Shown piece by piece: positions 34,569-37,142 of a stretch of 43,941 nucleotides of DNA. The stretch is taken from IMG/VR virus record IMGVR_UViG_3300010371_000054, positions 1 to 43,941 of that record; one strand, given 5' to 3'. The notes beneath the pieces are model-generated. The model saw only the letters and a list, made by a program, of their open reading frames with translations, was not told the origin of the DNA and ran no database searches. Within the stretch, counting starts at the first letter, position 1. The number at the start of each line of letters is the position of its first letter. The translations under genes were made by a program, and so were the position numbers. This DNA comes from a virus.

Positions 34569-34730
34569 TTAAGGACGAAGACCTAGCGCCTTGCGCCGGT
34601 CAGCTTCGCTGAGATGTTCGTTGCATTCTTTCAGCTTCGACCATGCCTCTGGCGGAACATCCTTCGTCCATTTAATCCCATACTGTTGGACCAACGCGCG
34701 GAATGCTTCGATTGCTTGCTCTTTTGTCAC
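34569..34730 (-). CDS. Hypothetical protein, 53 aa
   Basis: GTG at 34730 overlaps the Mom-like gene stop as GTGA. MTKEQAIEAFRALVQQYGIK then WTKDVPPEAWSKLKECNEHL: compact helical domain. Seen in rhizobial phages without function. Confidence 0.6.
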   Translation of the reverse strand: MTKEQAIEAFRALVQQYGIKWTKDVPPEAWSKLKECNEHLSEADRRKALGLRP

Positions 34731-35338
34731 TTTGAGTGTCCTTCAAACTGTTTGATGAAGAGGTGTTTCCGAGAACGCGGGCGCCACTCGCCAGTTTTCC
34801 CTTTTATTCCTTGGCGGCGCTGGCCGACGTTCACATTATCAACCCAGAAGTCTGTCTTCTGCGCCGTCAAGCCCATGTATTGGAACCCCGATGCCTTATA
34901 GATGATGCCAGTGTGACCAGCCGCGCTATCTGCATAGGTCACGATGCCACTGACGATGCACCGTCTACGTAGGAGAGAAATTGTTTTCCCAATGAACCTA
35001 CTCTCTGAATTGCGGGGGCAGTTTGGGCTCATCGCTAGGCGCTTAATTTCATACCAACCAAATTGACTTTTTCTATCCCAATATCCCTTCATCTCCGGTG
35101 CACTCAGTGGGCCATAAGAGATTGCACCCTCTAATTCCCCTTCGAAATATGCGCCAAAACTGATTTGAGAAAGGAACCCAACGTCACCTAGGTAATGCCA
35201 CCTTCGGTAAGCTACAGCCGCGGTGCGTGGATCTATGACTTCAAATCTAAGTTGGAGCGGCGAGGTCGGAATTGAACCGCCCTCCTTCCCTTGGAAAAGG
35301 GAATGCATTGCCCCTATGCTATCGCCGCGTAAATTCAC
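34727..35338 (-). CDS. Mom-like DNA modification protein
   Basis: 203 aa from GTG at 35338, GTGA-coupled to the gene before. Residues 30-165 match the Mu Mom / GNAT-related family: RWHYLGDVGFLSQISFGAYF, EIKRLAM, CPRNSES (107-113), and VTYADSAAGHTGIIYKASGF (133-152). Mom converts adenines in phage DNA to a bulky amide form that blocks many restriction enzymes. Residues 6-28 are encoded by a tRNA-Gly-like sequence, and no in-frame start exists between it and the conserved core. Confidence 0.8.
   Translation of the reverse strand: MNLRGDSIGAMHSLFQGKEGGSIPTSPLQLRFEVIDPRTAAVAYRRWHYLGDVGFLSQISFGAYFEGELEGAISYGPLSAPEMKGYWDRKSQFGWYEIKRLAMSPNCPRNSESRFIGKTISLLRRRCIVSGIVTYADSAAGHTGIIYKASGFQYMGLTAQKTDFWVDNVNVGQRRQGIKGKTGEWRPRSRKHLFIKQFEGHSK
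35253..35328 (-). tRNA. tRNA-Gly(TCC)-like gene with an 8-nt anticodon loop, nested in the Mom-like gene
   Basis: 76 nt. Acceptor GCGGCGA/TCGCCGC with TCCA end; D-stem GCAT/ATGC; anticodon stem TTCCC/GGGAA with loop TTTTCCAA (8 nt; normal loops have 7); T-loop TTCAATT. The T-stem is either 6 bp with one mismatch or 5 bp with a bulged C. Glycine identity elements known from E. coli (G1-C72, C2-G71, G3-C70, U73, C35, C36) are all present. It may be functional, a frameshift-suppressor type, or a decayed tRNA retained as coding or regulatory sequence. Confidence 0.65.
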
Positions 35339-35604
35339 GAGTTGCCTTTTTCGTCAGTTAAAGAACAACCGGCGTCGCGCTCGCATTCTTCGATCACTCC
35401 GATGATGTTGCCTGGATGCGCGCCTTTGTTGGCCCTGATCCAAGTCAGCGCCTTCCTCGCGCTCGCGAGCTGGGCGCGGAGCCGTTCGATCTCGTCGACG
35501 CCCTCACTGATATTACTGGCGACGCCTGATGAAAAATTCAGCTCGCACCTTACCGCATCAAACCGCAACCGATCGGCGATGGACAACGTTCCTTTTTCAC
35601 TCAT
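35335..35604 (-). CDS. Hypothetical protein, 89 aa
   Basis: ATGA overlap upstream and GTGA downstream. Helical middle (SEGVDEIERLRAQLASARKA) like a short coiled coil, and a Cys-containing C-terminus (EECERDAGCS). Function unknown. Confidence 0.65.
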   Translation of the reverse strand: MSEKGTLSIADRLRFDAVRCELNFSSGVASNISEGVDEIERLRAQLASARKALTWIRANKGAHPGNIIGVIEECERDAGCSLTDEKGNS

Positions 35605-36139: not shown

Positions 36140-36229
36140 TTACCGCAATTGGCAGGACATGAGCTGATACCCTGCGAAGATCAGCAGGAAGACAGCAGCA
36201 AGCACGACTTCGATCTTGAATGGCCTCAT
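36140..36229 (-). CDS. Single-TM microprotein, 29 aa
   Basis: ATG at 36229 overlaps the HNH gene stop as ATGA. MRPFKIEVVLAAVFLLIFAG plus YQLMSCQLR: basic start and one membrane helix. Function unknown. Confidence 0.5.
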   Translation of the reverse strand: MRPFKIEVVLAAVFLLIFAGYQLMSCQLR

Positions 36230-36618
36230 GTCCGCTTCTGGTTCGCTCGAATAATCCCGTCCGCAATCTCGTCATCTCCAGTGCAGGCATGGAGTGCCAG
36301 AGCAAGGCCGAACGGATCTATGCCGTGACGAGCCCAGAACAGAAGCTCATTGCCCTGATGCTGTTCGTCGTGGTGCGCCCTGCACAGCGGTGTCACCCAC
36401 TTGTCGGAGGCCTTTTCTGCTCCTCCGGTCTCGCGCTTCCCATGCACCGGGCTTGCTGCCCGGATGTGCGCCGGGTCGGGATCTGGAGCGCCGCAGATGC
36501 AACAATGCAATGTGCGAATCCATTTCAGGTGCGCCACGTCTTCAACACGGGGCCGCTTCTGCTTCGTGGATGCGACGGAAAAGGCCGTCCTGGGGCGAAT
36601 GATACGTTGGGGTCTCAT
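36226..36618 (-). CDS. HNH nuclease (Ref/DUF968-like)
   Basis: 130 aa from ATG at 36618 (ATGA overlap, AAGGAACG upstream). Residues 28-100: HLKWIRTLHCCICGAPDPDP, AHIRAASPVHG, DKWVTPLCRAHHDEQHQGNE, FWARHGIDPFGLALAL. CxxC, AHIR, and C-x-x-HH-x3-H form the HNH/beta-beta-alpha metal site seen in P1 Ref-like and DUF968 phage nucleases. Next to the Sak4-like ATPase, a recombination role is likely. Confidence 0.8.
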   Translation of the reverse strand: MRPQRIIRPRTAFSVASTKQKRPRVEDVAHLKWIRTLHCCICGAPDPDPAHIRAASPVHGKRETGGAEKASDKWVTPLCRAHHDEQHQGNELLFWARHGIDPFGLALALHACTGDDEIADGIIRANQKRT

Positions 36619-37142
36619 GCTCGTTCCTTCACTCGCCAAGCTTGATACTGACTATCGAGCTGATGCCAGAGCACGCGGGCTCTATGGTCGTGTCCAAGGT
36701 AACCGCGCGATGCAACTCCACAGATCAGCCGAACGCATTCCTCCGGACTACCCATGGCTTCGTGCCAGTCATCCGGCCGAGTTTCCTTCAGGAAGTCTGC
36801 GAACGCCGGTTGACCGCAGCAAATTCCCGCTTGCTGACCTGGCGGCACATCCCGCCAATCTCGCTTGGCAGCCCCGTCAGGCTTTGAGGGGGGCATGGGG
36901 GTGTCCTGACGGGGCTGCTCTGCGCGGGCCTCCTTCTGCTGCACGGGTAGCTCGTTGTCGCCGATCTCGACCAGCACCATGGCGAAGCGCGTGCCCATGG
37001 CTGCCTGAGTAAGGCGCGGGTCCATGTCGATACCTTGGGCCGTGAAGGACACTTTCCAGTCGCCGGATTGCTTCTGGAAAAGGCCATCCTTCTTGACCTC
37101 AAGAGATATCGCTGCGTTCCTGGCGTGGTCGGCGGGGGTCAT
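36615..37142 (-). CDS. Recombination-associated protein, possible ssDNA-binding partner
   Basis: 175 aa, ATGA-coupled to the ATPase gene. N-terminal 65 residues (ISLEVKKDGLFQKQSGDWKV, SFTAQGIDMDPRLTQAAMGT, RFAMVLVEIGDNELP) form a beta-rich module; a Pro/Lys linker follows, then a helical C-terminal domain (HEAMGSPEECVRLICGVASR). Proteins of this layout accompany Sak4-like recombinases. Function inferred from neighbourhood. Confidence 0.6.
   Translation of the reverse strand: MTPADHARNAAISLEVKKDGLFQKQSGDWKVSFTAQGIDMDPRLTQAAMGTRFAMVLVEIGDNELPVQQKEARAEQPRQDTPMPPSKPDGAAKRDWRDVPPGQQAGICCGQPAFADFLKETRPDDWHEAMGSPEECVRLICGVASRGYLGHDHRARVLWHQLDSQYQAWRVKERA

What the first reader, a model, noticed from the sequence alone, without database searches (positions are those of the whole stretch)
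34727..35338. A whole tRNA-Gly-like gene nested in the 5' end of a Mom-like gene
The 76-nt tRNA-like sequence (35253-35328, minus) lies entirely inside the ORF of the Mom-like DNA modification protein. The ORF begins at GTG 35338 by a GTGA overlap with the upstream gene. It has no in-frame start between the tRNA and the conserved core, so the tRNA must be read as codons 4-28 if the protein is made. In Mu, mom translation is blocked by an RNA structure at its start; here a tRNA fold occupies that place. It could be processed by RNase P/Z, destroying the mom message, or act as a structural switch.
Basis: partly seen in the sequence, partly recalled or inferred. Interest (0 to 1): 0.85.

Follow-up and report, generated by a model that had tools for sequence, protein, structure and literature searches.

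The report
Glycine tRNA nested in Mom genes
Many phages carry an odd glycine tRNA folded inside, or directly against, the gene for Mom, an enzyme that decorates viral DNA with a glycine-derived group, which suggests that this tRNA delivers the glycine to the DNA.

Summary
The 76-nt element at 35328-35253 (-) lies inside the Mom ORF (34727-35338, Pfam PF25680). Scans of IMG/VR and GTDB genomes with the RNA pattern alone, holding no Mom information, found 165 distinct element contexts. Of the 161 not cut by a contig end, 155 carry a Mom gene: 115 nested at its 5' end, 34 nested (one only partly) at its 3' end, 6 adjacent. These Moms fall into 57 clusters at 60% identity and are scattered over the Mom tree.

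The RNA covaries in all four stems. It keeps the bacterial GlyRS identity set (G1-C72, C2-G71, G3-C70, C35, C36, U73). It has features that should bar decoding: a bulged A in the T-stem, mis-sized anticodon loops, position 33 often not U, position 34 free. Cultured Salinibacter, Arthrobacter and Psychrobacter phages have tRNA-Gly-like genes abutting or overlapping mom.

The start-codon-switch reading cannot be the general role, because the element also occurs at the 3' end. Best explanation: a dedicated, probably non-decoding tRNA-Gly that supplies glycyl-tRNA to Mom, whose known product is an N6-glycinamide adenine. The tRNA-mom linkage is shown; charging and glycyl transfer are inferred. No description of the linkage was found in the papers held.

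The parts
35253..35328 (-). tRNA-Gly-like element, 76 nt, with encoded CCA
   Evidence: ARAGORN, RF00005 31.3 bits, R1 model 91.8 bits, consensus fold and covariation with 29 relatives
35322..35328 (-). acceptor stem 5' strand GCGGCGA (G1, C2, G3 glycine identity)
   Evidence: pairs 7/7 with 35257-35263; columns 4-69 and 5-68 show compensatory changes among relatives
35305..35319 (-). D-arm, 4 bp stem, 7-nt loop
   Evidence: columns 10-24 of A6; 3 of 4 pairs with compensatory changes
35287..35302 (-). anticodon arm; loop UUUUCCAA (8 nt), or 6 nt if U31-A38 pairs; C35 and C36 present
   Evidence: columns 27-42 of A6; compensatory changes at 27-42, 29-40 and 30-39; C35 and C36 invariant in A6
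35264..35281 (-). T-arm GGCGG-UUCAAUU-CCG(A)CC with bulged A at 35266
   Evidence: bulged A63 in 30 of 30 rows of A6; pairs 49-64 and 50-62 compensated
35253..35256 (-). U73 discriminator and encoded CCA
   Evidence: sequence; U73 in 28 of 30 relatives in A6
34727..35338 (-). Mom-like ORF, 203 aa, GTG start, reads through the element
   Evidence: PF25680 E 4.9e-30; phrog_1384 Mom-like
34835..35251 (-). conserved Mom (GNAT-fold) domain, ORF residues 30-168
   Evidence: AlphaFold model mean pLDDT 93.0; best Foldseek match Mu Mom 8bv8, E 2.3e-11
35000..35002 (-). Ser113 codon, aligned with Mu Mom Ser124 (the 8bv8 entry is titled 'inactive mutant S124A')
   Evidence: Ser in 72 of 77 aligned Moms
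35336..35338 (-). GTG start codon, GTGA overlap with the upstream ORF, AAGG 6 nt upstream (35345-35348)
   Evidence: sequence; relatives have ATG or GTG a few codons upstream of the element
35335..35604 (-). upstream ORF, 89 aa, same operon, no family found

Best explanation
The element is a member of a widespread family of tRNA-Gly-like RNAs tied in cis to mom. It is made from the mom transcript, or from a transcript that abuts it. It has the host GlyRS identity set and so would be charged with glycine, while its bulged T-stem and abnormal anticodon loop should keep it off EF-Tu and the ribosome. Mom would use this glycyl-tRNA as donor: the glycyl group is transferred to N6 of adenine in phage DNA and, by a Smiles-type shift, ends as N6-carbamoylmethyl-adenine (glycinamide), which protects the DNA from restriction. 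Shown: nesting, RNA covariation, near-exclusive linkage to Mom, identity elements. Inferred: processing, charging, use by Mom, and the chemistry.
For: Linkage: scans using only the RNA pattern gave 165 contexts; 155 of the 161 not cut by a contig end carry Mom. Representatives are Mom by Pfam in 55 of 55 cases and span 57 clusters at 60% identity, interleaved with Moms without the element on the tree. Position-independent: 5'-nested, 3'-nested, adjacent; two tandem copies after mom in Psychrobacter phage Y8A with a compensated acceptor pair. RNA: RNAalifold finds a cloverleaf with the bulged A unaided; 10 of 21 pairs show double changes; 99.4% of cells paired; 0 of 500 shuffles reach the covariation score. 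Identity: G1-C72, C2-G71, G3-C70 in 30 of 30, U73 in 28 of 30, C35 and C36 invariant in A6, matching the bacterial glycine set of PMC9976931. Non-decoding: loops such as AUUCCA or CGACCAG, often without U33 and with position 34 varying while C35 and C36 stay. S. aureus non-proteinogenic tRNA-Gly for FemXAB is a precedent (PMC4052509). Chemistry (own knowledge): the Mom adduct has the atoms of one glycine residue. Independent, more canonical tRNA-Gly genes overlap the 3' end of mom in Arthrobacter phages Wyborn and Sonny, and a canonical tRNA-Gly(UCC) lies directly before mom in marine contigs L017-L019.
Against: Many Moms have no such RNA nearby: 1 of 80 Enterococcus/Geobacillus-type loci has it, and it was not found beside mom in Mu or ICP1; these would have to use host tRNA-Gly. 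Foldseek neighbours after Mu Mom are CoA-using GNATs, and the literature proposes an acyl-CoA donor (PMC7824862). Six contexts have no detected Mom nearby. Nothing here shows expression, processing or charging. A bulged T-stem could also impair RNase P, CCA repair or GlyRS. Several phages share one element and upstream flank but carry different Moms, which also fits cassette exchange at this point.
Confidence: 0.68

Rival explanations
1. Regulatory reading: the tRNA-like fold in the mom message senses or titrates a host factor (GlyRS, RNase P, free glycine) and so controls mom expression, as RNA structure does in Mu.
For: Mu mom is controlled by an RNA structure at its start (PMC6483171); the 5'-nested form lies over the start of mom and the frame through it is kept open.
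Against: The same RNA occurs at the 3' end of mom in 33 contexts, beside it in 6, and as two tandem copies after mom; the upstream ORF is not recognisable as com. Keeping C35, C36, G1-C72 to G3-C70 and U73 together is what glycylation asks for.
Confidence: 0.14
2. Recombination site: the tRNA-like sequence is an exchange or attachment point at which mom cassettes are swapped, and the RNA has no function of its own.
For: Contigs L032, L043, L056 and L099 share upstream flank and element but carry different Mom subfamilies. tRNA genes are classic att sites (own knowledge).
Against: Compensatory changes in all four stems and selective keeping of C35, C36 and U73 are not expected of an att site; the partner is nearly always Mom and not other cargo; either end of mom is used.
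Confidence: 0.06
3. An ordinary phage translation tRNA that happens to sit in mom, supplying glycine for GGA/GGG codons.
For: Anticodon UCC in most; phage tRNA clusters include tRNA-Gly(UCC), for example in L017-L019.
Against: Bulged T-stem in 30 of 30, loops of 6 or 8 nt, frequent loss of U33; ARAGORN misses or mislabels several; near-exclusive link to one enzyme family.
Confidence: 0.05
4. The conserved thing is the peptide (GGxxPTxxLQ) that the segment encodes, and the tRNA look is secondary.
For: The frame is kept and the peptide is similar at both ends of Mom.
Against: Paired-site changes compensate in RNA; the element also exists outside any Mom frame, as in Salinibacter B2_17 and Psychrobacter Y8A; Moms without the element lack the peptide.
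Confidence: 0.04

Closest known systems
Mom DNA-modification family (phage Mu Mom, Pfam PF25680, PDB 8bv8)
   Same: Sequence family, predicted fold, the residue aligned with Mu Ser124
   Different: Mu mom has no detected tRNA-like element; no tRNA link was found in the Mom papers held; the Mom donor is only proposed in the literature, as acyl-CoA (PMC7824862)
Non-proteinogenic tRNA-Gly with FemX/FemA/FemB (staphylococcal cell wall)
   Same: Glycyl-tRNA set aside from translation for a transferase; tRNA features that weaken EF-Tu binding (PMC4052509, PMC9976931)
   Different: Acceptor would be DNA, not lipid II; the tRNA is nested in the enzyme gene; the disabling feature is a bulged T-stem and abnormal anticodon loop rather than 49-65/51-63 changes
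Aminoacyl-tRNA-dependent GNAT-fold enzymes (L/F transferase, Fem family) and GNAT toxins acting on aminoacyl-tRNA (TacT, AtaT2)
   Same: GNAT-type fold handling aminoacyl-tRNA (own knowledge)
   Different: Foldseek places Mom nearest Mu Mom and CoA GNATs, none of these among the 50 matches listed
Mu com/mom translation inhibition structure
   Same: RNA structure at the start of a mom message
   Different: Hairpin system that needs Com; here a full tRNA fold that also occurs at the 3' end of mom

Membership tests
Mom family (PF25680) | Match above the curated Pfam cut-off | tested here: met
   105.1 bits against a cut-off of 27.1; 55 of 55 element-linked representatives also match
Mom family (PF25680) | Residue aligned with Mu Ser124 (8bv8 is titled inactive mutant S124A) | tested here: met
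   ORF Ser113; Ser in 72 of 77 aligned Moms
Mom family (PF25680) | Makes N6-carbamoylmethyl-adenine in DNA | not testable with these tools
   needs nucleoside mass spectrometry
tRNA (RF00005) | Cloverleaf scoring above the gathering cut-off | tested here: met
   31.3 bits against 29; cloverleaf with covariation
Elongator tRNA | 7-nt anticodon loop with U33 | tested here: not met
   8-nt or 6-nt loop in the window; U33 often lost in 3'-nested relatives
Elongator tRNA | Unbroken 5-bp T-stem | tested here: not met
   bulged A63 in 30 of 30
tRNA-Gly (bacterial identity set) | G1-C72, C2-G71, G3-C70, U73, C35, C36 | tested here: met
   sequence; identity set from PMC9976931
tRNA-Gly (bacterial identity set) | Charged with glycine by GlyRS | not testable with these tools
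   needs aminoacylation assay
Staphylococcal-type non-proteinogenic tRNA-Gly | Loss of G18-G19 and altered 49-65/51-63 pairs | tested here: inconclusive
   window D-loop still holds GG; many relatives lack it; T-stem pairs are G-C but broken by a bulge
Mu-type com/mom switch | Com protein encoded upstream, overlapping mom | tested here: not met
   the 89-aa upstream ORF matches no Pfam family above cut-off and no PHROGs family

The most novel reading that the evidence does not exclude
Mom is a glycyl-tRNA-dependent DNA-modifying enzyme. Many phages encode its private, non-decoding tRNA-Gly inside the enzyme's own gene, so that one transcript gives either the enzyme or its activated-glycine carrier; Moms without such an RNA, including that of Mu, draw on host glycyl-tRNA.
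Probability: 0.6. Interest if true: 0.97.

Novelty: categorically new. Interest (0 to 1): 0.93.

Why it matters
How Mom obtains its glycinamide group appears to be unsettled; the literature read here only proposes an acyl-CoA donor. A tRNA-Gly fixed in or beside mom across 57 Mom clusters points to glycyl-tRNA and makes the question directly testable. If right, it would be, to my knowledge, the first DNA modification drawn from the translation apparatus, and a rare case of a tRNA gene read in frame as part of a protein gene, at either end of it. It also gives annotators a covariance signature for these RNAs, which tRNA finders miss: the Psychrobacter Y8A paper reports no tRNA genes although two such elements follow its mom.

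Tried and rejected
The A3 protein scan of GTDB genomes found nothing; the RNA pattern did. The peptide patterns included the tRNA-encoded part, so that set is biased; RNA-only scans were run for this reason. The blastn search of isolate phages with two elements found nothing; protein searches followed by the RNA model did. My first parse gave the T-stem as having a mismatch; covariation showed a bulged A instead. One search used a query of which I had typed part from memory; it is not relied on, and repeats it with the real sequence. Chance folding considered and rejected: covariation and linkage are far beyond it.

Full report
1. Observation. ARAGORN finds one tRNA in the window, tRNA-Gly(tcc), at 35253-35328 minus; Rfam tRNA matches at 31.3 bits, just above its cut-off of 29. 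It lies inside an ORF, 34727-35338 minus, that starts with GTG in a GTGA overlap with the upstream ORF. The Pfam Mom domain begins at ORF residue 30, after the element. The finding is confirmed.

2. Relatives of the window Mom. The four nearest Moms in IMG/VR (60-64% identity) all have the same kind of RNA fused in frame to the 5' end, with no start codon between RNA and core. A wider protein scan gave 79 loci; nearly all distinct ones show the same build, in front of at least five Mom subfamilies. Because that scan partly used the tRNA-encoded peptide, I then searched with DNA patterns of the RNA alone.

3. RNA-only searches. A pattern of the anticodon and T arms gave 59 IMG/VR stretches. All 59 ORFs that run on from the element look Mom-like; one is cut after 26 residues by the contig end. 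Of 165 distinct contexts from these scans, 115 have the element nested at the 5' end of a Mom gene, 33 at the 3' end, one partly at the 3' end, six lie within 600 nt of a Mom, four are cut by contig ends, and six show no Mom within 3 kb. One of the six has a Mom-like remnant, and one of the four edge cases shows the start of a Mom. Only 21 hits in some 85,000 genomes means this T arm is not that of ordinary host tRNA-Gly; in 14 of the 21 the element is nested in a Mom gene and in 2 it is adjacent.

4. The partners are Mom. At 60% identity the nested Moms form 57 clusters; 55 of 55 proteins in an alignment of the window Mom and 54 representatives match PF25680. A tree with Moms that have no nearby element shows both kinds interleaved: L101 beside ICP1, L251 beside CRP-902, 3'-nested types both with Mu and Y8A and with phiEf11 and Arthrobacter phages. 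So the link was gained or lost repeatedly. The AlphaFold model of the window core (mean pLDDT 93.0) matches Mu Mom 8bv8 best and then acetyl-CoA GNATs. Mu Ser124, mutated in the 8bv8 entry titled inactive mutant, aligns with window Ser113.

5. The RNA. RNAalifold on 30 nearer elements returned a cloverleaf with a 7-bp acceptor, 4-bp D-stem, 5-bp anticodon stem and 5-bp T-stem holding one bulged A; 10 of 21 pairs show double changes and none of 500 shuffles reached the covariation score. A wider set of 49 keeps the acceptor, anticodon and T stems, with double changes in 8 of 16 pairs. In the first set G1-C72, C2-G71 and G3-C70 are invariant, U73 is in 28 of 30, and C35 and C36 are invariant. 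In the wider set the 3' acceptor strand was fixed by the search pattern, so its invariance there is no evidence. The retained bases are the bacterial glycine identity set (PMC9976931). By contrast, position 33 is often not U, position 34 varies, and the anticodon loop is 6 or 8 nt in most 5'-nested forms.

6. Coding. In 5'-nested elements the mom frame contains a stop in 2 of 76, the other frames in 64 and 69 of 76; most have a start codon within about 16 nt upstream. In 3'-nested forms Mom reads in the same phase through the element and stops a few codons later. In L130 a second, tandem mom starts with GTG inside the element. So the segment is under both RNA and frame constraint, and a given transcript can presumably serve as message or as tRNA precursor, not both.

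7. Cultured phages. Salinibacter phage B2_17 has an annotated tRNA-Gly of the bulged kind starting right after the TAA at the end of the mom region. Arthrobacter phages Wyborn and Sonny have a tRNA-Gly-like gene overlapping the last 21 nt of mom, without the bulge. Psychrobacter phage Y8A has two short tandem elements right after mom, whose acceptor stems differ by a compensated pair; its paper reports no tRNA genes (PMC10434257). In marine contigs L017-L019 a canonical tRNA-Gly(UCC) ends 2 nt before the mom start, within a tRNA cluster. No element was found beside mom in Mu, phiEf11, CRP-902, WaterT, ICP1 or 79 of 80 Enterococcus/Geobacillus-type loci.

8. Mechanism. Mom adds a glycinamide at adenine N6 (own knowledge; 8bv8 is deposited as 'methylcarbamoylase mom'). 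That group has the atoms of one glycine residue, and N6-glycyl-adenine is its isomer, one Smiles shift away (own inference). The literature read here only proposes an acyl-CoA donor (PMC7824862). A cis-linked RNA that keeps GlyRS identity while losing decoding features points to glycyl-tRNA as donor, as FemXAB use non-proteinogenic tRNA-Gly (PMC4052509). Shown: linkage, structure, identity elements. Not shown: transcription, processing, charging, use by Mom. Moms without a linked element would have to use host glycyl-tRNA.

9. Rivals. Translational control cannot be the general role, because the RNA also occurs at the 3' end and outside mom. A recombination point may explain mom swapping but not the covariation. 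An ordinary decoding tRNA is unlikely given loop and T-stem. A peptide-only reading fails where the element lies outside the Mom frame.

10. Novelty. No paper in the library searched describes this linkage; that library lacks most subscription papers and most preprints, so prior description elsewhere is not excluded.

Noticed in passing
L130:3997-5312 (IMGVR_UViG_3300036760_000193): Two different mom genes in tandem, the second with the element and a GTG start inside the D-loop; that 193-kb record has three Mom genes and many tRNA-like matches.
   Followed up: partly
L032, L043, L056, L099: Same upstream flank and same element followed by Moms of different subfamilies, as if mom cassettes were swapped at the end of the tRNA.
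   Followed up: partly
L380:1662-1802 (Psychrobacter phage vB_PmaS_Y8A): Two tandem 68-69 nt tRNA-Gly-like elements that look D-armless, right after a Mom gene annotated as hypothetical; the paper names a different ORF (ORF69) as Mom.
   Followed up: partly
L354, L355, L362, L370 (Bacillota MAGs): Elements with the bulged T arm and no Mom detected in the sequence held; relatives in MAG MAS3.bin161 (L364, L365) are fused to Mom. Possibly solitary copies or another partner.
   Followed up: no
L372 (Arthrobacter phage Wyborn), L371 (phiEf11), L380 (Y8A): A ParB-like domain gene lies directly upstream of mom in all three, a possible recurrent partner.
   Followed up: no
window 36226-36639: HNH endonuclease-like ORF (phrog_96, E 1.5e-13) about 0.9 kb upstream of mom in the same orientation.
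   Followed up: no
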